DNA from: Phorcus lineatus
Taxonomy: Eukaryota > Mollusca > Gastropoda > Trochida > Trochidae
Assembly: GCA_921293015.1 (NCBI GenBank)
Contig: OV121090.1
Coordinates: 39,118,533 to 39,182,532, forward strand
DNA length: 64,000 nt
Reading direction: 5' to 3'
The translations under genes were made by a program, and so were the position numbers. The notes beneath the pieces were generated by a model, which saw nothing but the letters and a program-made list of their open reading frames with translations, was not told where the DNA came from and searched no databases. Positions 5,688-54,500 of this stretch are shown here, in pieces (position 1 is the first letter of the stretch; each line of letters opens with the position of its first letter).

Positions 5688-7516
5688 GGATAGCATGGAC
5701 GCTCTTTACAGTGACTGTGGACGCTATGGACGCTCTTTACAGTGACTGTGAATGCTATGGACGCTCTTTACAGTGACTGTGAATGCTATGGACACTCTTT
5801 ACAGTGTCTGTGGGCGCTATGGACGCTCTTTGATGTGACTGTGAACGCTATGGACACTCTTTACAGTGACTGTGAACGCTATGGACGCTCTTTGATGCGA
5901 CTGTGAACGCTATGGACACTCTTTACAGTGACTGTGAACGTTATGGACACTCTTTACAGTGACTGTGAACGCTATGGACACTCTTTACAGTGACTGTGGA
6001 GGCTATGAACACTCTTTACAGTGACTGTGAACGCTATGGACACTCTTTACAGTGACTATGGACGCTATGGACACTCTTTACAGTGACTGTGAACGCTATG
6101 GACAATCTTTACAGTGACTGTGAACGCTATAGACACTCTTTACAGTGACTGTGAATGCTATGGACACTCTTTACAGTGACTGTGGACGCTATGGACGCTC
6201 TTTGATGTGACTGTGGACGCTATGGACACTCTATGATGTGAGCGTGGAGGCTATGAACACTATTTACAGTGACTGTGAACGCTATGGACACTCTTTACAG
6301 TGTCTGTAGACGCTATGGACGCTCTTTACAGTGACTGTGGACGCTATGGACGCTCTTTACAGTGACTGTGAACGCTATGGACGCTCTTTACAGTGACTGT
6401 GGAGGCTATGGACACTCTTTAAAGTGACAGTGGAGGCTATGGACGCTCTTTGATGTGACTGTGGAGGCTATGGACACTCTTTGAAGTGACTGTGGAGGCT
6501 ATGGACGCTCTTTACAGTGACTGTGGAGGCTATGGACGCTCTTTGATGTGACTGTGGAGGCTATGGACACTCTTTGATGTGATTTTGGAGGCTATGGACG
6601 CTCTTTACAGTGACTGTGGAGGCTATGGACGCTCTTTGATGTGACCGTGGAGGCTATGGACGCTCTTTGATGTGACTGTGGAGGCTATGGACGCTCTTTG
6701 ATGTGACCGTTGAGGCTATGGACACTCTTTGATGTGACCGTGGAGGCTATGGACACTCTTTGAAGTGACTGTGGAGGCTATGGACGCTCTTTACAGTGAC
6801 TGTGGAGGCTATGGACACTCTTTGATGTGACTGTGGAGGCTATGGACACTCTTTGATGTGACTGTGGAGGCTATGGACACTCTTTGATGTGATTGTGGAG
6901 GCTATGGACGCTCTTTGATGTGACCGTTGAGGCTATGGACGCTCTTTGATGTGACCGTGGAGGCTATGGACACTCTTTGAAGTGACTGTGGAGGCTATGG
7001 ACGCTCTTTACAGTGACTGTGGAGGCTATGGACACTATTTGATGTGACTGTGGGGGCTATGGACACTCTTTGAAGTGACTGTGGAGGCTATGGACACTCT
7101 TTGATGTGACCGTGGAGGCTATGGACACTCTTTGATGTGATTGTGGTGTCTATGGACACTCTTTGATGTGACCGTGGAGGCTATGGACACTCTTTGATGT
7201 GATTGTGGAGGCTATGGACACTCTTTGATGTGACCGTGGAGGCTATGGACACTCTTTGATGTGACCGTGGAGGCTATGGACACTCTTTGATGTGACCGTG
7301 GAGGCTATGGACGCTCTTTGATGTGACCGTGGAGGCTATGGACACTCTTTGATGTGACCGTGGAGGCTATGGACACTCTTTGATGTGACCGTGGAGGCTA
7401 TGGACACTATTTGATGTGATTGTGGAGGCTATGGACACTATTTGATGTGACCGTGGAGGCTATGGACACTCTTTGATGTGACCGTGGAGGCTATGGACAC
7501 TCTTTGAAGTGACCTT
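5688..7516. repeat. 31-bp minisatellite, about 59 units
   Basis: The unit begins 'ggctatggacactctttgat' and is 31 bp long. The left part is dominated by variants with 'ctttacagtgactgtgaac' and the right part by variants with 'ctttgatgtgaccgtggag', with mixed units between, as expected for arrays that grow by local duplication. The unit length is not a multiple of three and no long frame is kept. It is not a CRISPR array, since there are no unique spacers. Confidence 0.95.
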
Positions 7517-24921: not shown

Positions 24922-26309
24922 ATGGCGAATCAAGGTACAACAAACATAAAGAATGTCATGTTTAAAGGCACAGACAAGAAAAAATCGAAAAACGATGGAA
25001 AGGAAAAGGGAATGAACACAAACAACTTGCAGAAAAAGCAGCAACCTGATCTATCCCCAGAAATAAATGACACGGAAGGATATCGGATAATTACCGATCT
25101 TTTCAGAGCTAAAGATGCAAAAACAATCGTCAAGATGGGATCCAAAGCAGACGTAGTAAGTAGAGCGATTCAAACATTTCATTCGTAGAAATCATAAAAC
25201 ATAAGGAAAGTAGTTTTAAAATGTTTTCCCGTTTACAAATTTTATAAAGCAAACTGGGGAAACTGGGGGAAATTGGATTGTCGGGTAAAATGTGATATCG
25301 CTAAATGAAATGAAAATACGTACTAGCAGCTCACAAACGATGTAAAATGACGCAATGTCAAGTGGCTCTAGCTGCCACACAAAAATTAAGCAAGATGCGT
25401 AAAAGACATTTTATAGTTTTTGGATTGATCTTATTTTGGTTGGTTGAGCATTGCGGATACTTATCTTCAGTTATAAGAAATGATAACAAGATATGTTAAA
25501 ATAATATGAAGATAATTTATATATTCAAATTATAATAAAGTTTATTTTTCTATATGTTCTTGCAACAAGTCTAATAGGAATGGTGTCAAAATGCGAAATG
25601 TAGGCCTTAAAAGAGTACACAATTGTTCATTTACCTTTTTTCACATCACGGTTAGCAGTGAAGCAATTTCACACTGAGAACTCCGTTTTAAAACAAGTTG
25701 AATCGACATAAGATGTATTTTATAATGATTGTTATATTTACACTAAACTGCATTTGGTCCCATGCCAAACGTTGAAATGCTAAAATCAGGTAAGTAAGGG
25801 AAAAAGATTATTCATATATACGTTATTAAAATTGAAATTCCATGACGTTTATCCCTATAACCGTTAATTTGATATCTCCAGCTGGGGATGACAGTCCTAG
25901 CTTTGGCGTCGAGCGTCGGGCACAAGGATGCCGTTACGTGTCTTCTAGAGGCCAAAGCTGAAGTCAACAAACAGTCAAAGGTATTACTATCAATAAAAAC
26001 AATCAAGTAATTATCAAGGTTCTAATAAACAGCAATATGAATTTTTGTCTGTGACCTTCTACCAATACGACAATTTGTTGCATTTTTATGAATATGATAC
26101 ATGTATCGTCACATGATGTTGTTGAATAAACTTTTTATTTTTTAAATCTCACTTTTGTATTTAGATTTAAATACATGGTTTGACCATGAGTTTATATTCA
26201 TCGAGCTCGTTACTCATACCATAAAATTAACCTCTATATCGTTTTTGTTTTTTTTGTTAAGACAGTTTGTTAAGGAAATATAATATAAAAGAATTTAAAA
26301 ACGATAAAC

Positions 26310-26376
<67 letters not shown>

Positions 26377-29300
26377 AATAATATGTATTAGGCTACAGTC
26401 AGTTTGAAATGCTTTGTTAAAGTAGAAAGTTTTAACTTTTAAAGACACACTGACATGCAGAAGGTGGGTGCTTGTTAATTATAATATTGTTATTCGTCAA
26501 AATGTTAAACATTAAAACCGCAGGACGGCAACTACCCTCTGATCCAAGCCGTGCGAGGAAAGTTCAGTGACATTGTCGATCTACTTCTGAAAAATGGAGC
26601 CAAAGTGACCCTGACCAACTACGTGAGTTGATTCAAGAAACTTTTAAGCAGTAACTTGTTCGTAATTTCGTCACTGGCAAAATGAGAACACGATAGACAA
26701 GCGAAATAAAAAGATAAAGCAAATGACGTTTAATTCAGAACGTGAAATAACGTTAGTCAAAAGTTTAAAAACTCTGTTCTACATTTCTAATTTATAAGAT
26801 GAAGCGCTCGTAAAATACACGCGAATGACCGGGATATGTGATCAAATCCCAATGCATATTTCAGGAAGGGGACAACGCTTTCATGATATCGGTGACGACA
26901 GGGGACGCCACCATCATTAACGCTATCTGGCGCTACAGGGGGGACCTCGACATCGATCACGCGAACAAGGTGAGTATGCATATGTGTGCATTTGGCTCAG
27001 GATGTCATGAAAGCAGAGATAAAAGGGTATGTTGTTGGGTTCAAATATATGTCAAACTTCATTAATGGTGTCATTTGATAGAGAAGTAGTGGTTGTTTCT
27101 GAAAATTAACATCTCATTACTTATAAGTTCAGTATACGGATAATAAGCAGGTTTAAGTCGTGAATTGTGATCGAAACCCGGACAATGGATCATTTAATTA
27201 ATATGTATGTAAATGGGACGCAGAATTTCGACTTATTAACATTTATTGTCGTTTCATTTACAACTGGAAACAAGAAAATATCATAATTTTGGCATTTAAT
27301 TAAAGGGACAGAGAGTATGTTGTTTGAGCCAAATATGCCAAAATTTATAAATGGCTTTATTTGATTGAGAAGTAGTGGTTGTCTCTGAAAATCACCATCA
27401 TATTGCTGATCAGTTCAGTGTGGATACAATAGACAGGTTTTAATTGTAATTAATGATAGAAAACCGGACAATGGCGCGCGCTAATGACTAAAACGTAATT
27501 CTGGAAACTTATTTACAGCGGATACAAGGAAAACTATACGTTTAATAATGAACGATAATAATGAACTTGAGTAAGGACATATGATACTTTTGCTCTTATT
27601 TAAGCCACATTCAAATTTTATGAATCATACTCTGTGCTACTTTGACGATCCTTATCACAAAAAAGCCACAACGGGTCTAGGCACAAATCTTAATACTCAT
27701 TCTTGTTCTGTCCCTCTTCCGGTAGTACGACAAGACGGCGTTGCATCTGGCTACAGAACGCCGCTGGGAGGGGTGTGTCGAGTTCCTCCTCCTCAACGGA
27801 GCCAAGGCAAACATCAGGAATGTCGTGAGTGCAATCTCATTTGAATAAGACCAGGGCCGGTATTCACAAAACTTCTTGTTATGTAAACTAAGAATTTTTA
27901 GTGGATTTAAGAATTCTTAATGCTTAAGAATTTTCTAAGAAGCTACATGAATACGGGCCTAGAACTTAACTTATTTGTTTTATTTACCCCGCTATATCGT
28001 TCTTTTAACGCTATCCGCGATTTATTTTAAATTAGCACATGTAAAGTTGTGTCAGAAGAGCACGAAATGTGAGGGAACGGCTAGATCTTATGTCGTGCGA
28101 GAAGGGTAATTCTTAACGTTTGAAAAAAAGAGTGTGTGTACCAAAATTTTGTTTGCCGTCAACGAGTGTTAATGTTTAATTCGTGAGTATAATTTAAGTT
28201 AAGATCAACCCTGTCTTCTTTTTTTGGTTGCGAACTCCTTTGGATGTTTTTCTCGGAGAGTTCGTATCCCAGTAGAGCTATATTTTGTAACTTTCATCCC
28301 TCAGAACATATCTTTAAAGAAATCAGACTTGAAAATATTGATTATAAAATCCTCTATTTTATTGCTAAAGGAAATGTGTTTTTTTATCTATTATCTTTCC
28401 AACTCCACGTTTTGGAGAACTTCTCGGTATGTGACACGTTTCAATGCCATGCAAAGGGTTTTACAACTACTCTGCTTTGGTATTCCACAGTATGGCTGCA
28501 CTCCTCTGTTTGTCTCAGTCACTCTCGGGGATCAGAAAATCACAGAGAAACTCATCGCCAAGGGAACGGATATACTCATAGAAGACAAGGTATGGTACTT
28601 TTTGCGAGGTCTTCCGAAGAAGAAAAACCCCAGTACCGAACCGATATATCGCTCTTGATTTGTATAGGCGTACGTTCTGTACTCCCAAGGGCGTGTAATA
28701 TGGTAAAATAATTGCCACTATATTTATAAAAGGGCCTTTACAAATTTATAATCGTAACCTTTCGATAAATAACAGAAATAAAGGGCAAACTGACCGAGGT
28801 TCGGACAGTGTATCGATTCAAATATTTTGAATGACTGTGGAGTGTATATCTTATGACTTACATGTATGGGAAGTTAGAGTACAGTAATATTATATTTGTT
28901 CGGAATCATAAATTATTTTTTCATTGTTACTAGACATTTATTCCGATAGATTCTCGAGCACTGCCTCATGCGTCGTAAGCGAATAGTGTCGTCACAGTCA
29001 GATTTGTAGGCATTCGAAGGAAAAACGCTTTTAGCGCAGAATTTTTCATTTTGTCCTATAAGTGTTATTCACATGTTTATTAATATTTCCTTAGCTTTTG
29101 TCTGTTCAATTAAAACATTACATGTCCTTAAAATGAAAATTTTAGAAGTGTCCGAACCATGGTCAAAACTGTCCGAACCAAGGTCATTTTGACATATTAT
29201 TTCGATCTCAATATTTACTTGTGTATTCATTTTAAATGTACCTATATTCAGAAAACATGGACTATTTGGCTGTTTCTCGTTTTGTATGAATACATTGTAA

Positions 29301-32300
29301 AATATTTTGGCGCATCCCACATTTCCTGACCCGAGAGTCAACATTACAATAAAACTGGTAATTTTCTTTCTTGAATCCGTTAATTGTATCTCCCACAGGA
29401 AACATCGCAAACAATCAAAAGTTGATTAAAAGAGATAAATGAAATAACATACTGAAAAGGAACATTTTAAAACGAACATATTGCCGACGTTGCACGTATT
29501 ATTGAGTCAGCTCCTAGTCAAAAGTGTCCGAAGTTCGGGCGACTTCGGGTTGGCATCATTTTCTATGAATATGGGTGTGATTTGTTTAAACAATGATATT
29601 GACCGGGACATCTGTCAGAATCGGTTGTTCATTAATCAAAAGGGGTTGTAAAGATTCAAATTTGTATCAAAGAAGCAAAGAAATGTAACACATAGCTTCA
29701 TAAAAATGTGATAGGGCTATGTAAAATCTAAATTTGACTTCAACAGATGCATGTATAAACTACGAGGTGAATCATATATATGTTTTTATAAATACTCATT
29801 ATTAATATAATGCATTTAGATAAAAGTGCATTAGTATCTGTAAACATTTGTGAAGGAAATGTTTTTATCGATTCATTTACTTATGTTTATACTCATTATT
29901 ATTATCATGTTTTCTTATTTCCTCTCCTGTCTCATGACATCGAGAAACAAAACTACAATTATGTTTGTTTCCAAGTTAAAAACTCGTGTTAAAGAATGCG
30001 TATTCGCTCTCTCACTGGAAATACTGTCATAAAGTCTGTCGTGTCGTTTTGATAGTATGTCACAGGAATTATGTCGTATCTTCTATGTCTGGCCTGCAGG
30101 AGGGGTTCTCTGCGATCTGTCGGGGCGTGGAAGCGGAACAACACGACGTGGTCGCCTATCTACTGACCAAACTGACCAACGCGCAAAAGGACCTTTATGC
30201 GAAGGTTCGAGACCATTCTTACTATTGTAATGATTATGGTTTATAAAATACCTTTGTTCATTGTACATTTAGATAAAAGTGCGTTAGTATTCGTATACAT
30301 TTGTGAAAGAAATGTTTTAATCGATTCATCTACTGATGTTTATTTCAGAGTCGACTGGAGAGGTTGAAGAACTACACCACGAATGACCAGAACACGGAAA
30401 ACGATCGGATCTTCTTTGATGTCCTGTACACCATCTTCTCGTCTGAGTCGTTCAAGGACACCCTGTACAGGGTCAAGGCCATCCCGAGCGTGCTGCAGTA
30501 CTCTCGGCAGCAAATGGAGTTGCCAGAGGTCATGTCCACATTGTTCATCATGTGCGCCATGCTGATGACCGACTTTGGGACGATCGTAGACGAGCGCTTC
30601 ACCCTTCAGTTTCTGCGAGCACAGGGGCAGGACCTTGTGATTAAGACACTGAAGTTGAACTCGGACTTCGAGAAACTGGACATGAAGTCAAATACGGAAG
30701 CTGCAGAGCCGTGCCTTGTGGCGGGACTGGCCTTGCCTATCGTCTGCCTGTGTGGTTTGGAGGAGGGTAGAGAGTGGTTGCAGAAGAACGTCGGCTGCGT
30801 GGACCTTGTTCGTGTGACAGACTACCTCAGGACCGGCTCGGCCATCGAGAATTTCTTCAACTGCAACACCTGTCCTCCAAAGTTCAGGAAGGTCTGGCAG
30901 GCTTACCTGGAGTTCTTTGACACCACAATGTCGTCGTTGAGAAACATCAACGAGGCTGATCTCCTTAGAGATGAGGAGAGGTCAAAACTTAAGGCCCAAA
31001 AGAAAAGGGAACGGAAGAAGTTGCAAAGGCAGAAAAACAGGGAGACAAAAGATGGGAATGTGAACAAGAATGCCAACGGCAAGGTGAATACAGACCGGGA
31101 AAGTAACATGGCGGCCGATACTGAGATTTCCTCTGGAAAACATGCAGAGGACAATGTGAGATACGACCAGCATGTTCTCATGCCCGACTGGAATATTTGC
31201 ATCGAAAACGTCAGAGAAAACGATGGAAACATCATACAAACGAAGCGAGATCCGATGCAGTTCCGATATAACTACGTGGAACCTACCCACAGCAAGAAAC
31301 CGAACGGTTACCACATGCCTCAGACAGCTGCGCCAGTGTGGGTCGACCACAGTGGAGGGAAGTCCGAGTGGCAGAAAGTAGAGCACAAGAAGGTTGCAGG
31401 ACTGAAATCAGCGATACATCCAAAGCAGCTGCAGGTAAACCAGAACGCTGGAGATTTCAAACGGCAGACCAAACGCAGAGAAGTTAAACAAAAAGAGAAA
31501 AAAAAGCAGGAGGCCACAACTCGGGCTCCAAGACCAGTTGGTGGGATTTGTTGGGCGGACGTTGCCAAGGGACATACCCAGGTCCAAGTACCATCACAGC
31601 AACAACGTCAGCACGACAAAGAACAATCTTGCCAGCAATATCAACAGTCAACGAATCAAAATCAGATAGCTGAACAACAAAGCTTTGTCTATCAGCAATG
31701 TCAACCTTATCTAGAGCAGAGAAATGCTGCTGTGAGCCCGCCAAAAAAGGTATTTACGGAGGAAGACTTCCCAACTCTGCATGAAGACGCTGACAGGACT
31801 GGCGCCTATGACACAGATGTTTCTGAAGCGCAGTCCACGTCCACTATTTCAATGTATGGTGAGGAGCAAATTGATCACATCCCAGACCCTATGACGGAGT
31901 CTGATGTGGTGGGCACAATGCCGGTACAGCAAAGGGAAGTTGAAAGTGAGTTGAACAATGGTTACCCAAATTCATACATGCCAACCCAAAATCAACCTCC
32001 GTTGCCTCAGTTAGTACCAAACTTTCATCTCATGGGGCAGATTCGTTACCCACCTCCTAATGTGATGTATAGATACGGGCTTGAACATCAAAATCCGCCA
32101 CCGGGTTTTCAGGAACAGATGATGCAAATGCAAAACATTGCCAAATTGGCCCAGTTACAACAGAGCTACGGGTTTAGCTTTCCATTTCTTCAAGGTCAGA
32201 TTCCTCCACCAATGACGATTGCAAACATTGCCCAGTCCTTACTCCAGTCACAGAACCCTGTCTTACCCCACGACGAGTATCAGTTTGAAGCTCAAAAAGG

Positions 32301-35300
32301 TACGCATAACAATACACAGGTTCAGCATGAAAACTGTGCTGTTAATACAAATGACGTCGTTCAAACCGTTACCCCTGTTGTGAATGAAAAAGACACAGAG
32401 AGGTGTGACATCTGGAGTAGCAACCAAAAACTGGATGCACTTACCGATCCTCCACAGCTTGATGACGAGTCTGTGTGGACCAGCTACAGGCAGGAAGATG
32501 AGAGCATTGAAGAGCAGAGTGAAGGGGCAGAACGGGATATGCCTGATCAGTGCCCTCAAGATCAACCCTCACCTGATGTTGTTACAGAAGCGTCTCAAAG
32601 CTCTCAAAATGAACTAGTGGATGATTTCTCCAAGATTTTGACGAGTTTGGCTAAACGTCTTTCTAAGTCGTCATCCGAGTCAGTTCTGTTTCCCGAGACC
32701 CTGCGAGATGAAGGTTCCAAATATCCAATAACAACTGTAGCAGAAAACCAGAACCTTTTTCCTGGATTCCACGAGATGGAGAGCACGGTGGCTGCTAACA
32801 GCACACTGAACCCATTTCTGCTGGAGAACCTCGCGAAGGAGCAGGTCAAGCGACAGTACAGGACCATTTCAGGCAAACCATTACTGGAGAACTCGGCACA
32901 CTTCCATGATTTCGACTACTATGCCTCTTTGTACGGTCTGACAACCGAGGAACTCAAGGCCAGTGCTGCTCAGGATGCCCTTGAGAAGAAAGGGCAAAAT
33001 GTTGGCAACTCTAAGATTGACGGTGATGTGTTTAAGGTGAGCTCTACAACTGTCATGCCTTCAGATACAACCGAGCACCAGCCGAATCTTGACATCAAAG
33101 GTGAATATAAAAGTGTGTATCCTGAAAGGCAGGCTAACAGCACGGCAATGAACATCTCGGGTACATCAACCGAACACGGCCAACGCCCTGGAATCTCCCT
33201 TGTTTTGGAACAGACACAACACCTTTCTCCAATCAACCACAAGGACGCCATGCCTCCAAACCTTACATCAGATGGCAATTATGCTCAAGATTACAACAGA
33301 AAAGCATGCTTTGTGTCACCTGTAGTGGTGTCTCCCAAGCAATGTGGCTCGATGTCTCCCACCAAGCAGGTTGCGACGTCTTCACCTTTGACCCACAATG
33401 ACGTTTCTTCACCAAGCAGGTTCTGCTCCAGTCCTCAGGCACCTCACACAAACAGTAAGGAATCCACCGAACAGCCTGAGGCCAACTGGGTTCCTCAGAG
33501 TCGACGCTGGAAAGACAAGCTGGCACAGATAATAGAAATGCCCTTCAACAAGAGGCAGCAACTCGGCAAGATTGTTGTCCCGATCAATGTCAACGGCTTC
33601 AAGATCAACAAGTCGTAAGTGTAACACTGAACTTTTCATTATTTTATATACCTACTGGTAGAACTGATGGATGACACGGAATTGCAATTTCAATGATAAA
33701 CCCCTATTTAATATACATTGCAAGATTTGAGAGACATTCAATGAATCCATCTATATTTATTCATGAGGAATTATGCATTTGTGGTGATACGTTGACGATA
33801 CACCTAATTATATTCACCTTAAAGTTTGTTGTTATCCTGATTTTCAATATCAAAGTGATAAGTACATAGAGGATACTAAACGACCTTCCATCCGATATTT
33901 TTTTTATATAAAACGAGTTAATGATTAGGTATATAACGAGCGAAAGCAAGTTTGATACAAAATCAAGAAGTAGTTTAATTAAAAAAAGAGATAGTATTAA
34001 ATCAATCTATTGAGTCCTATCTGCTGCAGGGGTGGCCCGGTGGTGCTTGGTTTCCTTACTGACGGGTGCGAGGTTGCGGTGCACGAGTTGGAATCGGATC
34101 GGGAACTGGTTGACAAGGACCTTATCAAAAAGCTCGCCTCGTCAGACACAAAGTACAACTTCCTCCTCAGATACAAGGTACGGACAGTACAGCCAAGGAA
34201 GATTATAAAGATTATAATCTGAGGCAGGGTGTCATATTATTTTCACGAAACAAGTGTAAAATTTTGTATCGAGAGCTTGGGCTAAAGACAAAATCATGGT
34301 TTTTTTAAATCTCACAGACGTCCACAGCACAGCCACGGGTGAAATATAACCTTTTTGCATTATTTAGTATTGCATTCATTTATACCAATGAATACCATGT
34401 ATATCTCATCTCGTGAAGTAGAAGTTTATAAATATACAATCGTGAAAATACTAAATCATAATAAATCACCGTCCGTGCCTAGCATGTACGACGTCATATT
34501 TACGACAGGTCTAAGGGTTTGACCTACCTACTTTAATTTTTTAATCTTAGTTACGGTTACCTTAGTGTATGGGAGCCTTGGGAAAGTGGATGCGTCCTTA
34601 ACGTAGCGCGAAGGGTGAAGTAACGATCGCCTCAGACTAAGGGGGCTCTGTCAAAGCGGGACCAGAAATCTAAGTGACGTCATACCATTCACTCACGTAA
34701 ACCTTATCGCTACTCAGCAGAGGATTTATTTCACTGAAAGAACAGGGTATCCCACTCTCAAACATGTTATAAATCCCAGTAATTCATTGCTCATGAAATT
34801 ATAAAATGTTTGAAAATATACTCTCTGTCAGTGGTGTGTATGACTGGTCATTCTCCTCTCTCTCCTTCAGGCGCTGGCTGAGATGGGAAGCCACCACTAC
34901 TTGGCCACGGAGCTGTGCGACTACACCCTGGAGGAGTATGTGAGCATAACCCGGCTGGACCACAACCACGATCCTCTCGCTACCAACAGGCTCGCCTGGC
35001 AGCTCCTCAAGGGCGTCAGATACCTGCACGAGGATCTCGGCATCGTGCACGGCAACCTCAGGGTCAGTATCTGAACAGTGAACATGCCCTTGTCCTTGCA
35101 TGTTACTTATCCTTGCTGCTACAACCAAACTGTGTTCAGGAATAGAAAATCAAAGATAGACGTCTTACCAGAGGTTGTTGAATCATTTTGACAGGGGAAA
35201 CTCTATAAGTGCTGATAAAACCTGCAGTCTTAAATAGAAAGTGCTTTCAGTAGCTACGAGGCATTCAATTCCTTTTTCAAATTCCATTGCCCTTAGTTAA

Positions 35301-38300
35301 CCCATCACGTTCATTAGAAATTTAAGATGGAGAGACATTATTTGCATGTACTTAAATGTATTAAAAATCTTGCCCCCAGCCCGACAATATCTACGTCGAC
35401 GGCGATGCCAAGCTGAGAGTCGGCGGGTATGGCATTGTTAAGATGGACAAGTTCGGGCAGTTCTCCAGAAAACCTGCAGGTACTCAGAATGGTTGACATA
35501 TGGAACTCTTTGGTTTGGTTACAGGATGAAACTAACACTGACATTATCTTTACTAAAATCTCATGTTACCGCTATCCGTCTGAAAATAATTTGAGGATAG
35601 CTTAACGAAGCCCTGGATTAACAACTGGACTAACAACAATATTTTGAGAAAGGTCATTGTTTGATGTATTTAGGAATGAAAATACATCAGCTTTAACGAA
35701 ATAATAATGTAAACCAAGAAATGAGCAAATGTTGAAAATGATCGAGGTTCAGATATACATGTAGAGGATATCTAATGAGTGTCCATGACGTACTATGTTT
35801 ACGACACGAGTGACTAAATATAAGTATTTCCCGAGCGAAAGCGTACTAAGGCACATGTGTTGTGAACATAGTATGTCATGGGCACGAATATGATATATAG
35901 AGGATACTAAACGACCTTCCATTTAATACTATTTTTATTAAACAAGTTAATGATTAAGTATAAAACGAGCGAAAGCGAGTTTGATACCAATGTTTAACGA
36001 GTTTAATAAAAATAATATTAAATGGAAGGAAGTTTAGTATTCTGTTTATTACTTGACCTCAGTAATCAAGCATTATTACCGAAAGTGTACTGAACGAAGC
36101 ATTTCCGCGACTAAGCCGCCATTGAGACGTCGGTGCCAAGATTGTGACGTCACAACCACACAAAATTATGACGTCATACGGGGAGCGGTATTACACTAGT
36201 TTAATATCGCCGTATAAATATTACACTGCGGTATCTTACACGGGCGAGTAATAATCTGTTATATTATTGTTTATGACGTGACGTCACAATGAAAATGGGT
36301 GTTTTCCCATAGTGCAAAAATTATTGACCTCAATATGATTGCCCTCGTAGGTAATGATACTCTCACTCAAGAAATACTAATATTAAGCACTCGTGTCGTA
36401 AACATAGTATGCCATGGACACCTATATAATATCCTCTATTTATTGCGACAAATCATACTGTTCCAGTAAACTCATGCTGGCGAGCCACTGAGACATTCGC
36501 CGAGGACGAGAGCTCGACCCCGACGGCCAGTTCGGACGTTCAGGTGGTGGGCATGTTGCTGTATTACATCCTGACAGGTGGGCGGCACCCGTACGGGGGC
36601 AGCAGCTTCGAGATCGAACTCAACCTGTGTCAGAACTCAACCAAACTCACCTTCATCAGCGAGGAGGCAAACCATCTCATCTCCGCCATGTTGTTTTCGG
36701 AGGTGGAGGAACGGCCCTCCATCGACACCTGTCTCAGGTACTCACCATTATCTCCCCATAGAGGTACCTTAAGTCATTGCTTTCCTGCTGGCCTCTTTTA
36801 CATGTAGAACACTGTTTCCGCTAAAGATGTTACACGACATTTGATTGTTTGTAGAAAACACGACATCAGTATTACAAATTTGCACCGCTTGGGGATTTTG
36901 AAAAAATCCAGGAATATGGTCTACCTGTGGCAGATGTTCCTAAGAAAGTACTTCGGTAATCTCTGTGGGTAGAGAATGCCAGCAAGGCTGTTCTGTTTGT
37001 TTCTTTATAGATGTCGTTATTTCGTATCTATACCATAGTCGACCTTTGATTGGATGAAAATTTTAATGTGGGGGCGTTTACAAAATTTGGATCTTATCTT
37101 CTTTGAAATACAGTGTCCAATTATCACAAGTGTGAACAATTGATAACATAACCTATCCTCTCTGAAGAAGGCCGGTGAATTCTATGGTATTCCCAATTCA
37201 GTCTATCATAAAACCGTATATATATGTTTTGTGATCCACACAGACACCCGTTCTTCTGGTCGGAAGAGAAGCGGTTCCGGATGGTGCTGATAGCGGGCTC
37301 GGACATACTCAAGGAGATGAAGACTGGGTGAGACACCATTTGGATACTTTGTGTCTAGAAATACCTTCGTGCTGAGGATGTATTATTCTATGACTTTAAC
37401 CTCGAACATTTGATTGATTTTATCAGTGCACGTCCTCATGCCCGAAGTTAATGTTATAATGATGGATCGTGAATTCATCTCTGCTCCTTTCACAAAATAC
37501 GTCCCTAACTAACGTGTTGCTCTTATGTATGTGTATAGGAATTTGGTCTTTTCTTGACACATGTTATCGAGAGAGTATGATTTTTTGCGATTTTCACTAC
37601 AGGCGCAAAGTAAATGTATTATTCAATATAAGTTGAACTTTTAAGAGTGGCCCTCACTGGTACCGGCAGCACCACGATGACTGACTTCTTGAATGTTTCC
37701 GAGCAACAGACAATCAGCGACGGATGGGTGAGTATTCAACTTTTAAATCAACATTACGACCTGATTCGTATCTATACAGCACTGAGTGATAAATAGAGAA
37801 TCTTATCCAAGTGTCTTCTGATATCAATTATATCAAAACGAGTTGATGAAAGTTACAAATATCCGAGGCTTGCCGAATGAATGACAAATTAACATTACTG
37901 AACACAGTGCTGCCCTAAGACTCCAAGTGCAGCGATGTTATAGCATTGTGATGTCATTACTTGATGATGTAAAACAACTGTGATGTCATATACTTGACGT
38001 CAGAGGGGCATTGTGATCTTCCACAAGCGATATCTCCTGTGGAACAGAGTTTTGGATGATAAAACGTTAATACGCTCATTTTGTAAATTGCGAATTGCTT
38101 TACACTCGTTTAAAATAAATCTTCTGAGACAACAAAGACATGACAATGTAAATATTGGTGTGTGTACAAACTGTAATTCTGGAAATATTGAAGATGGGTA
38201 TCATGTACTGTATATGACAGACAGACAGTTTATTCAGTAAAAGGCCACTGGCCCATAATACAGTCATTAGCAGGTAAATATTGCATGAGCGTTATAGAAA

Positions 38301-40366
38301 AGCACTAGAATTTCTTATTTTCCTAACTTGACGTAAAAATAGACATAAATTGTTAATCACATCTTTATGTTGATGACATAAGATTAACAAAAGTGTACTG
38401 TGAAATTGGATGTTTAAGATATTTATCAAGAAATATTTTCCTTATATCCGAATAGACTTTACAGTAGAGTATCACATGTATTTCATCTTCAATTAAATTA
38501 AGATTAGACTTTTTACAAATAGGGCAAAATCTTAAATCTTAGGGGACATTGTTATATCTACCAGTCACCGAGACAAGCTTAAATTTTCCACACCTAAAAT
38601 TTGACAAACAATTTCTTAAATGAAAAGGGATATCTAATCTTAGATATGTTTCAACATTAAGGAGAGACTTGAAAAGTTTATAATTAACACACATAGTTGA
38701 ATTATGGAGAGATGAATGCCAATCCTGTGAGAGATTATCAGACAACCTTTGTTTAAAGACAGAAATAAACCCATTAATATCTCCAACATCCTGGGATATC
38801 CAAACAAAACCAAACCCAAATTTAAATAAAACACTTTTGATATGAGATGCCCATGTAATGCGACCAGATTCATCCAGAGACTTTATAACATTAAATGAAA
38901 CTGATGAGAAAATCTATGACTTGGAAGAGTTAAAAGTCTACACCAAAATTTGATTGCCCTTGTCATATAATTTAGTTGAAGAGGTAATCTGCCACATTCA
39001 CATGTGTGAACGATATAAAAACCTCAGAAATAAGTATTTGGGAAATGTAAATCACAGAAACTTGTATGCTCTTGTTACTTCATCAAATATTGAATTGATA
39101 AAATCTGTTGCAGTCTTTATGATACATGTATTTGCATTAAAAACTAATTATATAACAATATTTTGTCCTGTCACGTGACATATGTACGTGGTCACATTCA
39201 ATTGTTCTCTAGCCACATGGCCGAAATATTGAATAAACTGATCTGATTTGATTTGGATGGGTGAGTGTTTTACACTGTGTCTTTTAATATCACGAGACGT
39301 AAATGCTGGAGTGGTTTACGGTAGCTGCACTCATGAATGTCTTCGTATTGACCTTTTGAACCTAACAAAGTGCCACCAGGCTTACCATTACCTATCACAG
39401 TGATGGCTGGGTTATGTTTGGTCTTAGGGATACTGAGGAAGACGTGCAAATGAACATATTAGGGGATGTGGTACCTGTATACACATATGATATCAATGAC
39501 ACTGGCCATGTTTGCCCGTCTTTGTTGGTGCAGATGAACATAGTTGGGGATGTGTACTTTTATACACCTATGATATCAGTGACACTAGTGTTTGCCCCTG
39601 TGTGTGTTGGTGCAGATGAACATGGTACTACAGTGCACATATATGGTATCAATGACAACAGTCACGTTTGCCCTTTTTGTGCGCAGATGAACATGATAGA
39701 TGGCGCGGTGCTGAAGGAGATGCGAGCCTTCAGACAGTACAAGAACACGCTGGCCGAGATGGTGCTCTTCATCTACAACTGCTGCCTCCACTTCGACAAG
39801 ATGTAAGTGTGGCGAGGGCTTAAGTCGCGTGTAATTTTAGAGTTGGTTTATTGCGCAAAAAATACCGTTTCATTGCATTTCTTCATCGGAGAAGTTATCT
39901 CTTATGATTTGGGATTTCTGATAGAAGCGCAAAGTTAAGGTACAGTAGACTGAAGAACTAGTACGGGCCAATCGACGATATGCAGCAAGGCTTTAATTAG
40001 CCACTGGTTTGGACTGTTGCGAGTAATTGCTTGTGGGGGAGGTTTGAAAATGTCTTTTTTGTGTCTGTTACAAGATGCTCAAAAGTTCAGTTCTGATGTC
40101 ATGAATGTAATGATCGGGATGGGTCAGGATGAACTTCGAATCTTCTTATAATCTTCGGATTTTCTTATCCTTTTTGTAGTTTTAATGAAGACTTTTGAGT
40201 CAGCACTTTTTAATTTTCTTCTCATAGGTCGTACGCAGCACGCGAAGCATTGGACGACCCTTGCCGCTACTTCCTCCAGCGGTTCCCTCCCTTGTTCATG
40301 GCCGTGTACAGAGCCATCAAGGAGTCGGACCGAACAGACCGTACCTGCTACAGGCCCTTCTTCTGA
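24922..40366 (+). CDS. RNase L-like protein: ankyrin repeats, long insert, pseudokinase, KEN RNase domain
   Basis: Sixteen exons: 24922-25155, 25882-25980, 26524-26622, 26865-26969, 27726-27824, 28491-28589, 30100-30204, 30349-33614, 34030-34177, 34871-35062, 35380-35479, 36467-36737, 37244-37327, 37646-37727, 39687-39802 and 40228-40366. They sum to 5,238 nt, about 1,745 residues, with agreeing phases throughout. The start ATG has an in-frame TAA two codons upstream. Six ankyrin-repeat exons cover residues 79-280, then a helical and disordered insert to about 1355, a kinase-like domain to about 1605, and a KEN domain (HPFFWSEEKRFRMVL to the end). IRE1 and RNase L share kinase-KEN; adding N-terminal ankyrin repeats is the RNase L order (741 residues in human). 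In vertebrates RNase L is switched on by 2-5A during viral infection and cuts RNA. Whether this protein senses 2-5A is unknown. The weakest junction is the acceptor at 37646. A polyadenylation signal AATAAA lies at 40784. Confidence 0.9.
25882..30204 (+). CDS. Ankyrin-repeat exon block of the RNase L-like gene
   Basis: Six consecutive exons of 99, 99, 105, 99, 99 and 105 nt, every one phase 0-0, each coding for one ankyrin repeat. Recognisable cores are VLALASSVGHKDAVTCLLEA, YPLIQAVRGKFSDIVDLLLK, TALHLATERRWEGCVEFLLL and TPLFVSVTLGDQKITEKLIA. The fourth and last repeats are diverged. The donor of the last exon (GTTCGA) is weak. Human RNase L binds 2-5A with its repeats 2 and 4; I could not align the binding residues with confidence. 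Confidence 0.9.
26312..26374. repeat. (AT)n microsatellite
   Basis: About 30 AT repeats in intron 2 of the RNase L-like gene. Confidence 0.98.
27005..27650 (+). mobile_element. Two adjacent MITE family A copies in intron 4
   Basis: The first copy covers about 27005-27297 and the second 27301-27650. The second has terminal inverted repeats: 'aaagggacagagagtatg' at the left, and 'catactctgtgctacttt' at the right, whose reverse complement matches. The first copy is internally deleted. The right end of the pair is about 75 bp before the exon at 27726. Confidence 0.75.
27850..27962. mobile_element. Short foldback element in intron 5
   Basis: Begins 'agggccggtattcac' and ends 'gaatacgggccta'. The ends are near inverted repeats, with AAGAATT-rich inverted inner parts. 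About 110 bp, non-coding. Confidence 0.6.
28790..29545. mobile_element. Possible non-autonomous DNA transposon in intron 6
   Basis: The left end has 'gaggttcggacagtg' and the right end 'gtgtccgaagttcgg', imperfect inverted repeats, with further 'gtccgaaccatggtc' and 'gtccgaaccaaggtc' inside. No transposase is seen. The 113-residue minus-strand frame is not recognisable. Confidence 0.4.
29817..30348. repeat. Direct repeat in intron 7 ending at the acceptor of the large exon
   Basis: About 75 bp at 29817-29890 ('tagataaaagtgcattagta' and on) recurs at 30270-30345 with a few changes. The second copy runs into the acceptor 'tatttcag' of the 3.3-kb exon. Exon 7 lies between the copies. Confidence 0.75.
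30349..33614 (+). CDS. Single 3,266-nt exon of the RNase L-like gene: helical domain plus long disordered region
   Basis: Adds about 1,089 residues (281-1369) between ankyrin repeats and pseudokinase. The first roughly 230 residues look helical and repeat-like (FFDVLYTIFSSESFKDTLY, EVMSTLFIMCAMLMTDFG, LVAGLALPIVCLCGLEEGRE). A basic stretch KAQKKRERKKLQRQKNRE follows. The rest is rich in Q, N, S, P and T and is probably disordered. It carries two short conserved-looking motifs, GGICWADVAKG and FTEEDFPTLHED, and a later ordered-looking piece HFHDFDYYASLYGLTTEEL. The end (KIVVPINVNGFKINKSGG) leads into the kinase N-lobe. Antisense frames inside it are shadows. Vertebrate RNase L has nothing comparable here. 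I do not recognise the helical domain. Confidence 0.9.
33868..34012. mobile_element. Foldback-element arm in intron 8
   Basis: Contains 'gaggatactaaacgacctt' and 'cgagcgaaagcaagtttgat', the words that define the foldback family seen complete at 35893-36055 and 45360-45530. Only part of the element is present. Confidence 0.55.
34030..36737 (+). CDS. Pseudokinase exons of the RNase L-like gene
   Basis: Four exons. The N-lobe reads VVLGFLTDGCEVAVHEL: the VAIK lysine is His (H1387) and the glycine loop is reduced. The C-lobe has LLKGVRYLHEDLGIVHGNLR with PDNIYV: the HRD aspartate is Asn (N1480). In place of DFG it has GYG (G1498). An APE-like CWRATET and then VVGMLLYYILTGGRHPYGG follow, close to IRE1 and RNase L. 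All three hallmark residues are therefore replaced, so phosphotransfer is unlikely. RNase L itself uses its pseudokinase to bind nucleotide and dimerise. Confidence 0.88.
35762..36441. mobile_element. Nested foldback elements in intron 11, ending 25 bp before an acceptor
   Basis: The outer arms (about 35762-35815 and 36385-36441) are inverted copies of roughly 50 bp sharing 'actatgtttacgacacgagt'. Inside lies a second foldback (35893-36055) of the 'gatactaaacgac' family. Beside it is a segment with three TGACGTCA words (36145, 36169, 36279) that also occurs near 60 kb. Confidence 0.75.
37244..40366 (+). CDS. KEN RNase-domain exons of the RNase L-like gene
   Basis: Four exons give HPFFWSEEKRFRMVL, TGTGSTTMTDFLNV, AVLKEMRAFRQYKNTLAEMV, FIYNCCLHFDK and the C-terminal CRYFLQRFPPLFMAVYRAI. 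Against human IRE1 (FRTYKGG.., MRNKKHHY) and RNase L (FIRNLGEH), the active-site Tyr (Y1679), Asn (N1692) and His (H1696) are kept. The Arg before the Asn is Tyr (Y1691), and the IRE1 Lys after it is Cys. RNA cleavage may be kept, weakened or changed in specificity. The alignment was made by eye. Confidence 0.87.
38013..39255. mobile_element. LINE fragment interrupted by an inverted copy of the same kind of LINE
   Basis: A plus-strand piece (38013-38215) encodes INLLRQQRHDNVNIGVCTNC and NSGNIEDGYHVL. The frame resumes at about 38990 with CERYKNLRNKYLGNVNHRN and VFMIHVFALK and ends in a LINE-like tail 'attgaataaactgatctg' near 39225. Between them, on the minus strand (about 38880-38270), sits another C-terminal fragment with LSQDWHSSLHNSTMCVNYKL and LRFCPICKKSNLNLIEDEI. 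All lie in intron 14 of the RNase L-like gene, and both are broken. Confidence 0.75.
39445..39700 (+). repeat. Tandem duplication (about 70-84-bp units) of the acceptor of exon 15
   Basis: The acceptor plus first codons of exon 15 ('gcgcagatgaacatga', 39681-39696) is repeated upstream: 'gtgcagatgaacat' near 39611 and 39529, and a form with CAA instead of CAG near 39445. Each copy is followed by 'tatgatatcaatgacac' or a close variant. The copy with acceptor at 39532-39533 is in frame with exon 15 and open throughout. Confidence 0.85.
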
Positions 40367-48542: not shown

Positions 48543-51500
48543 TCAAGTCTTTACATTTTCCTTGTCCTGTCCTTTCTCCTTTTCAAGCTCTTCTTCTTCG
48601 TCTTCCTTCATGCACACTTCCGGTCTGTAGCTTCCGGTTTGTCTCGCTTTCAGTTTGGACGCAAGACTTGCGTGAGCTAGTCTTATTGAAAGCGTTAGGC
48701 ATATGAGACCCGTGAGACCAGCTGAAATAAGAAATTGGTAACAAATCAAAGGTTTATTCAAAGGAATTCTTTTTCTCGAGATATAACGTTGACCAACTAC
48801 CTCGAAACAGTGCATTTTATCGGGGTTTTTTTCTGATACCAAAAAAAAACAAAACAAAAAACGATGGGCGGCTCTGTTATACATACATATCGTGTAGAAG
48901 GGAGACAATCCAGTCTGTGCGAGACACAGGAAGGCGATTCCCATTGATTCCAGTTTCTCCTTCAACTTGCCCTCCATAATAGCGGCGGTCGACGAAGTGG
49001 GAATATCATCACTCTTCTTTAACTCTCTTGGAAAAAAATAGAAAATCAGCATAGGAATAATTTTGGTTGCCAATACCAAAGAGTAATATCCCAAAGCTTT
49101 AAAGATCTCATAAATGCCGACTGATATTGTCAAAAATATGTTGAAACATTTAAGGAATAGAGGATTCTCACATTTAAATCGAAAAATTACTAAGCAATAT
49201 GATTTTTAATCATTCACAGTAGCCAGTTAGAGACGAATGTTCAATTCGTGAAGGTACAATGCGATGGAGTAATTGTCTTTGTGAATGCTATAAAGGAAAT
49301 AAAGGTAAAATATTTAACAATTATTTATATCGATGCCGTCAGCGGAGAGTATCTATAATCAAAGAGGCATCACCTGTAATAATAAGCGCGAAAGTAGTCC
49401 TGCACACGGACCACGCCCAGTGTAAACTCGTACACCATGATGGTGACACACGGAAGTAGGAACATCAGCGTTTGGACCCACGTCATGTTCGAGAAATCTG
49501 TTACCATGGTGATCGACCATAGCGCCAGTACGTTCACGATCTGAAACAAAATATTATTCGTTTATTAATTCCTTGACGAGTTAGTGGTTATATCTCCATG
49601 CAATGTAACATCATTAACAAAAACATGGTTTTCTTGACATTTAATTTGTGTTAAAACTGTTGGATTTAAGATTAAATACAGATAACAAAAACGATTGGAT
49701 GAAATTTGAATACCAGCCACTGCTATCAAGGTTCCTGTTGCACAAAGACCAAAGATTCGTATCTCACTTAACTACGCATAGTGCAGTTGTAACAGGATCA
49801 CAGTAAGATTATCCTTTGTTTAAGGTTAATTTGTTCAACGGCTTTGAAGAGTATCATCAGAGCAGTGAGTTCGCTTTTGATATAAGCTAATGTGTAATAA
49901 GTAGCGGGGTCCCCCACCTTATCACAAAAGGCGTCCATGAACCCTCCCAGAAGGGGGTCGTCCACCCTCCCCAGCGTCTGTCTGTGCACCTTAGCCACGA
50001 TACCGTCCAGATGATCCAGGAAGTCGTGAAGCAGGACCAACAGGAAGGCCGACCAGCAGCACTGGTATCTGAATAAGTTATTTAGTACCTTTAGGGAACT
50101 CGTATCTGAAAGGCATGGCAGCTTAACAACTCTTTATCTGCAAGTCATATTGTACCTTAGAAACCCCCCTCCTTGGCACCCGCAACTAATGGGGTGTTGA
50201 TCGATATGAAATAATAGTTTACAGATAATTGGACAGAGAACATGAACAGCTTAAATTTTGGTAGGAATCATGTTGCATTTGGTAACTTTATAAAATTGTA
50301 AACATGCTATTCTTATAGAAAGGTTTATGTTAGTTCTGAGTTGAGCAGCTATGCGGAAATGTATGGCGTGTTGTTCCAAGGTTATGACACGTTGTTGATA
50401 GGTGATTTTTTATTCAATGACATGAAAACGGGTCTGATATACAACCTTAAACAAAAACAATCGAAAAACTTTTGAAAGGACGTAAGGAAAAAAGAAAAGC
50501 GCTAAAAATGATAATGAATGAGAAAAATTACGCATACATATTTTGGTACTAAGAAATAAAAATCACACATGAAACTATGTATTTAGATTCCAGAATGACA
50601 ATGTCAAGAGAATACTCACTTGAGACAGGCGGCTATAGGTATGACGAGAAGTGTTCTTGACCAGGAGACGATGTTGGCGGAGAAGACGGTGTAGTCGTGA
50701 CCTCGGACCTGTACGCATCGGGGTACACGCTCCACGGCGGGCCACAGGGTCGCCTGTAGGGGACTGTACACGTAACTGTCGTACCAGCTCACCTGCAAGA
50801 AAAAAATGTCAAGATATAAATGGTTTTTACTTTACGATTCCTCATTTAGGAAATGGCTTTGAGAAACAATGACGAGAGGCAAATGGAGTCATTTAAGTCA
50901 AGTAGATTATTTTACAAAAATGTATTCAAGGATTCTGTCGAAATCGGATAGCAGAGAAACAATGACGTATTCCCTGTTTTTACTTTACGATTCCTCATTT
51001 AGGAAATGGCTGTAAGAAGCAATGACGCATTCCCTGTTTTTATTTACGACTCCTCATTTAGGAATAGCTTTGAGAAACAATGACTGACATATATGACGAT
51101 GAAGACTGACATATGTCGATGAAGACTGACATATGACGATGAAGACTGACATATGACAATGAAGACTGACATATGACGAGGAAAACTGACATATGTCGAT
51201 GAAGACTGACATATGACGATTAAGACTGATATATGACGAGGAAATCTAACATATGACGATTTAGACTGACATGTGTCGATGAAGACTGGCATATGACGAT
51301 GAAGAGTGACATATGACGAGGAAAACTGACATATGACGAGGAAAACTGACATATGACGTTGAAGACTGACATATGTCGATGAAGACTGACATATGACGAT
51401 GAAGACTGACATATGACAATGAAGACTGACATATGACGATGAAGACTGACATATGTCGATGAAGACTGACATATGACGATGAAGACTGACATATGACGAT

Positions 51501-54500
51501 GAAGACTGACATATGACAATGAAGACTGACATATGACGATGAAGACTGACATATGACGATGAAAACTGACATATGACGATGAAGACTGACATATGTCGAT
51601 GAAGACTGACATATGTCGATGAAGACTGACATATGACGATGAAGACTGACATATGACGAGAAAAACTGACATATGACAATGAAGACTGACATATGACGAT
51701 GAAGACTTACATATGACGAGGAAACCAATGACAGCTTAATCGCTTTGTACATTATTTGTACTGAATGTAGCATGCCACGCACTGCCCTAGTGAACTCTGT
51801 TAAGGCCAAACCACTGCACAATACCAGGATGCTTAAGATGCTCAAATGAATATTAAAGAGACACTCCGTGAGTTGTTGGAGTCATATATGCCAAACTTAA
51901 TCAATGGTGTCATTTGATCGCGAAGTATCGACTGTTACCAAAAAGACACATTTTAAAGCTTGTTGGGTATTTTTTACAGTGACAATATGAAGGTAGAACG
52001 TCGCAATTATGATCGAAAACCAGGCAGTGGCGCGTGTCAAATAGTCAAACGTAATTTTGGAGACTTATCTAAAACAGCCAGGAGGGCAGTTAGGAGTTGA
52101 TAGTGTTTGTTAGGTTACTAGTATATAACTAGTATCCATACATATTGGACGTGATATTTACACCTCTGTGCATTAATAAGGCTGTTTTCAGATTTTCATG
52201 GAAAACCAGTATTTGTCATATATATGTCTTTTGGACATGAAAGTTAAGATGTTTTGATTTTATATCGCCACACATGGCATTTAGGTTCGTAAATAATATG
52301 TTATGAAAATCACGGAGTGGCTGTTTAAGGCAAGAGGACTATAAGCTTTGTCGTGTTTCGAGAGTGTCTAAATAGAATAACTGTTATTGACTTAAACATA
52401 CTTGCATATGTGAATTGAAACAAAACAATTTTGAAATATGTCAAATAAGATGCATTAGTTTGTCAACAGTTTTGTTGATATGAAACGTTAAGAGTAAATA
52501 ATAAATACAAAGTTCAAATGAAGGGAACACTAATATCACCATGTGCTTAACCGTCCAATGATATCATGAATACTTCCACGTTCCTGTCCTCTGTTCATTT
52601 ATTAAACATAAATTAGGAATTTTCTTAACAAATACCATCTTTCAAAAAGAAAAAAATAATATGTTGCCTGAAAATCAGGATCAGTTGACTGCATGAATCA
52701 TTCTTGACCAACTAAATGGTTTATATACTGTATAATGTATCATCATATGGATGCTCAATGGAACGGTCCAAGAGATTGTGAAAATAGTTATGAATTTAAT
52801 TTACTTACTTAATACTTAATTTTTTGTGTATCAAAACAGCTTTTGTCCTTGTTCTTCATTCACATAACGACTATTTGGTGTAAGAAATCGCAACACTGAT
52901 TCCGTTGTAAGTTAAACCTTTCACACACAGTTAGTGGCATGTTCGAAACATTCACAAAGACAGCTTCCCTTTATCAACAGTTGTCAAAAGAAAGGCAAAG
53001 TCAGAAAATATCGTAATAAATATGTGATCATTTTGGGTTCAATTTGTTCACTTAGCATCTCTTCCTGTTTACTGTTACTCGTAATAGTGACTTCGTCGCT
53101 TAAAAATATCTTATTGTTTAGGCATCTTTACAATTTGGTGAGTTTTGAAGGTTCATGCATGTTTAAGTAGGAGATATCTCTTAACGTCCTGGAATGTCAT
53201 CCTCATAGTAACTAAATTACTCACATAATAATGGCGATTAAAACCTAAAAACAAACACAGATAATACCGGTATCTGTTTTCAATATGACTAATGTTGTTT
53301 TGGACAGAAAAGTAACAAGATTTTTTAAAAACCCACACAAACCTATTCAACAGTGATACGTTATTTCAGCTGTTCATTTTATTGTATCATACCATTCGTT
53401 ACCAGACATCATTTGCTGGTTAAAATCGATGATGCTAAAATAAGAATTTACGATATAAAGAAGTGTTCTTGTATTCAAACAAGCAGTAAATAAAAACGAT
53501 AAACCTAGATAAAAGATGATATATTATCAGTGTTCATACGACACGAGTCGTAGTTGATACTTCTCGCTCGAGAGCGCGGGATTGACCGATTGAAATCAGA
53601 TGAACGTATCGCGAGCTTCTAACATTTGTCCATTATCTATATAACTTGTAAAATTAAAACAAAACGAAACGGAAATAAAACGAAAAGAAATTAAACATGC
53701 GGAATCCAATCCCATTTTAATCAGATTGACCGATAGGCCTATGTATATTTTGAAAATTATGAACTAAGAAATAATTGCCCTCGTAGTCAATAAATGACAT
53801 TTCACTTTAACAAGGAGCTATAGTACAAAAGAGGCTGATGATATGCAACAAATATAATGGTACCATTAATTTCGTTAATTGAAATATCATTTTGCAATGT
53901 TACGTGGATAACAGCATGTCACCATAATTGCTTCACTGTATAAAATTCTTGGAACTAATCGATGGAGACATTCGGTGATATTGTTAACCAATCTGAAAAC
54001 ATTTATACCGACAGTTCTTTATAATGTTATAAAGTTTGACGATATATAAAATAGATATTAATCTATTTATTTTTTATTTAGATTGGACGTTGGCCATCAG
54101 CTTGGTCATCGTGTCAGACTAGCATTCACAATAATCAAGATCAAACGTAGACTTTATATCAGATCGACATCGAGATTTCATCGAATAAAGAAGCTGTAGA
54201 CAACATAAAATTCTAAGCTTGATATAACGTAATTAAACTGATTGTTAGTTTTAAACAAACAAAAGCAAATTTGAGTGCAAAGATAAAACTTACAACAATG
54301 TGTAAACCATGATGAACGCTATAAGAGTGTATCCATTTCCGGAAGTTAAACAGAATAGAGAATGTTAAGTTTTACGCATATGACTCGTGAATTATCATAA
54401 CACGATTTCTTATAGGAAAAAATCAACATGTTCATGAAGATCAATAAATCATAAACGTATAATATTGTTAACTACAGAGTTCTGGTTTAATTTGAAAAAA

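What the first reader, a model, noticed from the sequence alone, without database searches (positions are those of the whole stretch)
24922..40366. RNase L-like domain order (ankyrin, pseudokinase, KEN) in a probable mollusc
The sequence shows six ankyrin-repeat exons, a kinase-like domain and a C-terminal KEN domain spliced in one frame over 16 exons. Established knowledge: IRE1 is universal, whereas RNase L with N-terminal ankyrin repeats is described from vertebrates, while OAS-type 2-5A synthases occur in sponges and molluscs. An ankyrin-KEN protein here may be the missing effector of an invertebrate 2-5A or other nucleotide-sensing pathway, or an independent fusion.
Basis: partly seen in the sequence, partly recalled or inferred. 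Interest (0 to 1): 0.88.

Follow-up and report, generated by a model that had tools for sequence, protein, structure and literature searches.

The report
RNase L-like gene in a mollusc
A mollusc carries an intact gene built like the vertebrate antiviral enzyme RNase L, but its signal-binding pocket, kinase site and one key RNA-cutting residue are gone, which suggests the architecture is older than its known antiviral use.

Summary
One gene of 15 exons (not 16; 14 of 14 introns GT-AG, phases consistent) spans 24922-40366 and encodes 1710 aa: four clear ankyrin exons, a degenerate fifth and a partial repeat, a 3.3-kb exon, a kinase-like domain and a C-terminal KEN domain. The genome is molluscan (haemocyanin); no second copy was found; it has an intact IRE1 and OAS genes with catalytic Asp residues.

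It looks like an RNase L-lineage protein rather than a late ankyrin-IRE1 fusion: the giant exon ends in RNase L's inter-domain linker (W-x-PQS-x2-W), and trees prefer RNase L to IRE1 as its relative (moderate support; kinase alone unresolved; raw similarity is higher to IRE1).

The proposed role as active 2-5A effector is not supported. At most one of five 2-5A residues is kept in any register, the kinase has lost VAIK-Lys, HRD-Asp and DFG, and the catalytic Arg of KEN is Tyr. Best reading: a maintained, non-enzymatic or strongly impaired RNase L-type sensor or RNA-binding scaffold. The main prior paper on RNase L origin could not be read.

The parts
24922..25155 (+). exon 1: ATG, basic N-terminus and partial ankyrin repeat (aa 1-78)
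   Evidence: partial repeat by eye
25882..25980 (+). exon 2: ankyrin repeat, 33 aa
26524..26622 (+). exon 3: ankyrin repeat, 33 aa
27726..27824 (+). exon 4: ankyrin repeat, 33 aa
28491..28589 (+). exon 5: ankyrin repeat, 33 aa
30100..30204 (+). exon 6: degenerate ankyrin-like repeat, 35 aa
   Evidence: inside the ankyrin-chain alignments
30349..33614 (+). exon 7 (3266 nt): predicted helical region aa 246-480 (low-confidence model), long linker probably disordered, RNase L-type linker at its end
33487..33510 (+). W-V-PQS-RR-W motif (aa 1292-1299) matching RNase L W336-K-PQS-SH-W
34030..34177 (+). exon 8: kinase N-lobe; VAIK Lys replaced by His (34082-34084)
34871..35062 (+). exon 9: kinase; HRD replaced by HGN (Asn at 35054-35056)
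35380..35479 (+). exon 10: kinase; DFG position reads GGY (starts 35422)
36467..36737 (+). exon 11: kinase C-lobe
37244..37327 (+). exon 12: end of kinase (HPFFW) and start of KEN extension
37646..37727 (+). exon 13: KEN, with the W equivalent to RNase L W632 (37725-37727)
39687..39802 (+). exon 14: KEN active-site helix; catalytic Arg is Tyr (39774-39776), Asn (39777-39779) and His (39789-39791) kept
40228..40366 (+). exon 15: KEN C-terminus and stop TGA

Best explanation
A protein-coding molluscan gene of the RNase L lineage, found once in its genome: ankyrin repeats, a long linker, a pseudokinase without the nucleotide-site motifs, and a KEN domain. Shown by sequence: gene model, domains, loss of the 2-5A residues, of the kinase motifs and of the KEN Arg, OAS genes alongside. 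Moderately supported: common descent with vertebrate RNase L. Inferred: it works as an RNase L-type sensor whose ankyrin block binds a partner or a ligand other than 2-5A, and whose KEN dimer binds RNA, or pairs with another KEN protein such as IRE1, with little or no RNA cleavage of its own; the long linker would tether it to partners.
For: Intact 1710-codon frame over 15 exons with consistent codon usage, so it is maintained. Domains over Pfam cut-offs. Among the 60 best chains listed, the kinase-KEN part hits IRE1 and then RNase L ahead of other kinases; the full protein aligns to human RNase L over aa 1281-1698 as one stretch, which includes the end of exon 7 (table). Linker W-x-PQS-x2-W: local score 51, reached by 1 of 10000 shuffles; not found in six frames of 26 kb around and upstream of the own IRE1 kinase. 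Window+RNase L is the best tree in 18 of 18 alignment and column variants, both alternatives at AU<0.05 in 16 of 18; the gap of 9.98 log units was reached in 0 of 100 simulations under the window+IRE1 tree, largest 3.66. One-residue deletion after the conserved Tyr of KEN shared with RNase L. Losses. No second copy found. HEPN domains without the motif are proposed to bind RNA non-catalytically (PMC3710099, abstract and passages).
Against: Raw identity is higher to IRE1 (29.9% human, 29.6% own, 28.5% yeast) than to RNase L (24.1% human, 24.4% pig) over kinase-KEN, and phmmer gives 115.7 against 76.8 bits. The kinase part alone does not resolve the tree, and ungapped columns give AU 0.057-0.066 for the alternatives. 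Only six sequences, both RNase L mammalian; long branches could still attract each other in ways a homogeneous model does not capture, and the simulations had no gaps. The linker match was noticed by eye before it was tested. Catalytic loss is inferred from one position; His, Asn and Trp are kept. With the full protein, several ankyrin-only chains score above RNase L. No relative from another mollusc was available.
Confidence: 0.57

Rival explanations
1. Independent fusion: a mollusc-lineage copy of IRE1's kinase-KEN part acquired ankyrin repeats separately from vertebrate RNase L, converging on the same order.
For: Higher raw identity to IRE1 than to RNase L; IRE1 is the better phmmer hit; kinase part alone unresolved; ankyrin repeats join many proteins (general knowledge).
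Against: Linker motif shared with RNase L and not seen near the own IRE1 (a motif split by an intron would be missed); KEN columns and shared one-residue deletion favour RNase L. Of the own-IRE1 introns that I could place by eye, none sits exactly where the window gene has one, the nearest two codons off, so it is no recent copy.
Confidence: 0.26
2. Active effector: it is a working RNase switched on by an OAS product (2-5A or a variant), the invertebrate counterpart of RNase L.
For: OAS genes with the catalytic Asp residues in the same genome; same domain order; KEN keeps Trp, Tyr, Asn and His.
Against: At most 1 of 5 two-five-A residues in any of four registers; KEN Arg replaced by Tyr, a residue reported as necessary (PMC3710099, passage); kinase nucleotide motifs lost.
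Confidence: 0.07
3. Two neighbouring genes: an ankyrin-plus-linker protein ending at the TAA at 33616 and a separate kinase-KEN gene.
For: The exon 7 frame has a stop (TAA) directly behind the proposed donor site; no RNA evidence.
Against: The donor is GTAAGT and the phase matches exon 8; the last residues of exon 7 match the RNase L linker; the kinase half would lack the start of its N-lobe.
Confidence: 0.06

Closest known systems
Vertebrate RNase L (human 4oau, pig 4o1o)
   Same: N-terminal ankyrin repeats, W-x-PQS-x2-W linker, kinase-like domain, C-terminal KEN, one-residue deletion in KEN
   Different: four clear repeats plus degenerate ones against nine (nine recalled); an exon of 1088 codons between repeats and kinase; 2-5A residues not kept; no VAIK-Lys, HRD-Asp or DFG; KEN Arg667 is Tyr
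IRE1/ERN1 (human, yeast, and the one on contig C2 of this genome)
   Same: kinase-KEN module, 28.5-29.9% identity
   Different: own IRE1 keeps VAVK, HRD, DFG and RN...H; the window protein has ankyrin repeats, a hydrophilic N-terminus and no kinase motifs
Catalytically inactive HEPN/KEN domains
   Same: loss of the Arg of the Rx4-6H motif; HEPN domains lacking the motif are proposed as RNA-binding (PMC3710099, abstract and passages)
   Different: here the His and the Asn after the Arg position are kept

Membership tests
RNase L | N-terminal ankyrin repeats, then kinase-like domain, then C-terminal KEN | tested here: met
RNase L | 2-5A pocket residues W60, K89, F126, E131, R155 (mutated as such in PMC5927464, passages; there E131A and R155A lowered activity only partly) | tested here: not met
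   0, 0, 0 and 1 of 5 in four registers
RNase L | inter-domain linker W-x-PQS-x2-W before the kinase (noted here from the human and pig chains, not a published criterion) | tested here: met
RNase L | KEN catalytic Arg667 and His672 | tested here: not met
   Tyr and His
RNase L | groups with RNase L rather than IRE1 in a kinase-KEN tree | tested here: inconclusive
   favoured in 18 of 18 variants but kinase alone unresolved, six sequences only
RNase L | activation of RNA cleavage by 2-5A | not testable with these tools
   needs protein
IRE1 | active kinase motifs VAIK, HRD, DFG | tested here: not met
   His, HGN, GGY
IRE1 | lumenal domain behind a signal peptide | tested here: not met
   hydrophilic N-terminus and ankyrin repeats in its place
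IRE1 | transmembrane segment between sensor and kinase | tested here: inconclusive
   one hydrophobic stretch, aa 364-382, mean hydropathy 1.96 against 1.68 for the best stretch of human RNase L; could be a buried helix or a membrane segment
OAS-RNase L pathway | OAS genes with catalytic Asp triad in the same genome | tested here: met
   11 OAS1_C hits; motifs in 6 of 6 regions read, which hold 7 of the 11 hits; one unread hit has stops inside
OAS-RNase L pathway | functional coupling of an OAS product and this protein | not testable with these tools
   needs biochemistry

The most novel reading that the evidence does not exclude
RNase L-type ankyrin-pseudokinase-KEN proteins already existed in the common ancestor of molluscs and vertebrates, and their first job was not 2-5A-triggered RNA cutting but RNA binding or scaffolding under ankyrin control; the OAS link was built later, in the vertebrate line, on this older protein.
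Probability: 0.3. Interest if true: 0.82.

Novelty: new variant of a known kind. Interest (0 to 1): 0.6.

Why it matters
A 2018 survey found OAS but no RNase L in eight non-vertebrate animals, including oyster, limpet and Lingula (PMC6307210, passages), and a 2026 review says the coupling is thought to date to jawed vertebrates (PMC12922763, passages). A mollusc gene with RNase L's order and linker would push the architecture back before the protostome-deuterostome split and make two questions testable with one protein: what invertebrate OAS products bind, and what RNase L did first.

Tried and rejected
A 16th exon near 40075 was considered and dropped: exons 14 and 15 join in phase without it and the KEN alignment is continuous. 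A structure model of the exon-7 helical region alone was poor (mean pLDDT 45.4, one sequence), so no fold search was run; that region has no match among solved structures up to E 5 and only its own locus in the genome. A viral-contig scan found nothing. A genome search with pig RNase L gave 23 rows, all matching the kinase part only, and missed both the window gene and IRE1, so it is no evidence that a second RNase L is absent. The KEN family search found three IRE1 exons and, below cut-off, window exon 15 (at the default threshold showed two IRE1 exons only). Long-branch attraction was tested by simulation and not supported (100 of the 120 simulated alignments were scored; window+RNase L was best in 30 of 100, never by more than 3.66). 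The AU test carried a warning of too few replicates; searches used 10000. The paper most likely to bear on priority (Chu and others, PNAS 2023, seen only as a reference in PMC12922763) is not held, so I cannot say whether ankyrin-KEN proteins of invertebrates are in print; ten paper searches showed none among the titles and abstract starts listed, which were capped lists.

Full report
What is there. Reading the window with splice sites gives one plus-strand gene, 24922 (ATG) to 40366 (TGA), 15 exons, 5133 coding bases, 1710 residues; 14 of 14 introns are GT-AG and every phase fits. Exons 2-5 are each 99 nt, phase 0, one ankyrin repeat; exon 6 is a degenerate repeat; exon 1 ends in a partial one. 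Exon 7 is 3266 nt; its 1093-codon open frame is about five times the next longest in the window and has log10 P near -25 for chance openness under its own composition. Codon usage trained on exon 7 alone prefers the annotated frame in 12 of the other 14 exons (exons 4 and 15 miss), and all 14 score above the 95th percentile of 500 random 150-nt stretches from the first 24 kb of the window. Pfam calls ankyrin (2.1e-29), protein kinase (4.5e-20) and KEN (2e-11) in the spliced protein.

One transcript or two. The frame of exon 7 meets a TAA right behind the donor GTAAGT, so a separate ankyrin gene is conceivable. Three points speak for joining: the phase-2 donor fits exon 8; exon 7 is open for 55 codons before its first ATG, so it probably needs an upstream exon; and the last 50-odd residues of exon 7 belong to the stretch that aligns to human RNase L together with the kinase and KEN (aa 1281-1698). 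RNA would settle it.

The animal. The genome (958 Mb, 74 contigs) has 16 haemocyanin beta-sandwich units in two loci on contig C12, eight hits each; that Pfam family is recalled to be molluscan.

Relatives. Against solved structures the kinase-KEN part hits IRE1 (best 1.9e-32, 115.7 bits) and then RNase L (1.2e-20, 76.8 bits), ahead of the other kinases among the 60 rows shown of 1275. With the full protein, ankyrin-only chains come first and human RNase L is eighth (7.5e-36). Identity over kinase-KEN is 29.9% to human IRE1 and 24.1% to human RNase L; over KEN alone 30% and 31%. Yet the tree of six sequences (window, human and pig RNase L, human, yeast and own IRE1) joins window and RNase L: gap 9.98 log units, alternatives AU 0.025 (few replicates). 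Eighteen of 18 alignment and column variants agree, 16 of 18 with both alternatives below 0.05, the two others between 0.056 and 0.073. The signal sits in KEN; the kinase part alone is unresolved (alternatives AU 0.15 and 0.48). In 100 simulations under the window+IRE1 tree the gap never passed 3.66. Independent of branch length, the end of exon 7 reads NWVPQSRRWKDKL where human RNase L reads DWKPQSSHWGAAL; the local score of 51 was reached in 1 of 10000 shuffles of the two linkers and in 1 of 2000 shuffles of all of exon 7. The motif W-x-PQS is in no frame of the 26 kb that hold the own IRE1 kinase and about 16 kb before it (a motif split by an intron would be missed). RNase L and the window protein also share a one-residue deletion after the conserved Tyr of KEN. 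I take common descent with RNase L as more likely than not, and an independent fusion as the main rival.

What is lost. In the kinase, VAIK is VAVH, HRD is HGN and DFG is GGY; RNase L itself keeps the Lys and reads D-F-D. In KEN, Trp, Tyr, Asn and His of the active-site region are kept but the Arg (R667 in RNase L, R905 in IRE1; numbering of IRE1 recalled) is Tyr. A 2013 analysis states that both Arg and His are needed in KEN and that HEPN domains lacking the motif may bind RNA without cutting (PMC3710099, abstract and passages). Of W60, K89, F126, E131 and R155 (PMC5927464, passages) none is kept in three registers and one (F126) in the fourth. In that paper E131A and R155A lowered activity only in part, so not all five are absolute. 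The genome's own IRE1 keeps the kinase motifs and RN...H, so the losses are specific to this gene. The gene is nevertheless intact, which argues for a maintained function.

Topology. The protein starts hydrophilic; one stretch (aa 364-382, in the helical region of exon 7) has mean hydropathy 1.96, above the best of human RNase L (1.68). A membrane segment there is not excluded, though it would put ankyrin repeats and kinase on opposite sides.

The pathway. The same genome gave eleven OAS C-terminal hits, one with stops inside. Six regions holding seven of them were read, and in 6 of 6 the GS, D-x-D and third-Asp motifs are there. So a mollusc with OAS enzymes also has an RNase L-type protein, but one that should neither bind 2-5A in the known way nor cut RNA well. 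Only two KEN genes were found, IRE1 and this one, though that search is weak: it caught the window gene only below cut-off.

Mechanism. Most likely a sensor or scaffold: ankyrin repeats bind a protein or an unknown ligand; the pseudokinase is a fold for dimer contacts; KEN binds RNA or pairs with another KEN; the linker recruits partners. Everything after the domain anatomy is inference. An effector for a different OAS product with weak cleavage is possible.

What is known. A 2018 survey reports OAS but no RNase L in eight lower animals including oyster, limpet, Lingula and acorn worm (PMC6307210, passages). The Aplysia immunome paper reports neither OAS nor RNase L (PMC9334734, passages). A table in PMC3710099 notes KEN with kinase 'along with ankyrin repeats, CCCH in some', without naming such animals in the passages seen. 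A 2026 review says the coupling is thought to have arisen in jawed vertebrates, citing Chu and others 2023 (PMC12922763, passages), which I could not read. Protein databases of invertebrates may already show this order; none was at hand.

Change after checking: the transmembrane test went from 'not met' to inconclusive and the motif search near IRE1 was widened; confidence in the best explanation was lowered by 0.01 and the fusion rival raised by 0.01.

Noticed in passing
window 39444-39627: An 83-bp unit in 2.2 copies just upstream of exon 14 resembles the exon's acceptor and first codons (CAG ATGAACAT...), so possible decoy acceptors precede the exon that carries the KEN active-site helix.
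   Followed up: partly
G000 C5 54.93-54.98, 55.77-55.82 and 40.70 Mb; C13 42.81-42.83 Mb (L003-L010, L023-L028): OAS gene family, partly clustered, in this mollusc, with catalytic motifs in the regions read.
   Followed up: partly
G000 C12 7.646-7.661 and 16.558-16.572 Mb (L029, L030): Two haemocyanin loci with eight unit hits each.
   Followed up: no
window 31552-31569 and 31759-31779 (protein aa 647-652 and 716-722): WADVAK and EEDFPTL motifs in the long linker, reminiscent by recall of RNA-regulatory proteins; not tested.
   Followed up: no
window 31440-31446 region and aa 364-382 (window 30703-30759): Hydrophobic stretch AEPCLVAGLALPIVCLCGL at aa 364-382 in the helical region of exon 7, above the best stretch of human RNase L; buried helix or membrane segment.
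   Followed up: partly
window 49798-50133, minus strand: Open frame with a weak CDP-alcohol phosphatidyltransferase match below cut-off (E 0.0049).
   Followed up: no
window 51091-51723 and 5695-7513: Tandem arrays of a 20-bp unit (31.6 copies) and a 31-bp unit (58.7 copies); open frames over them are probably spurious.
   Followed up: no
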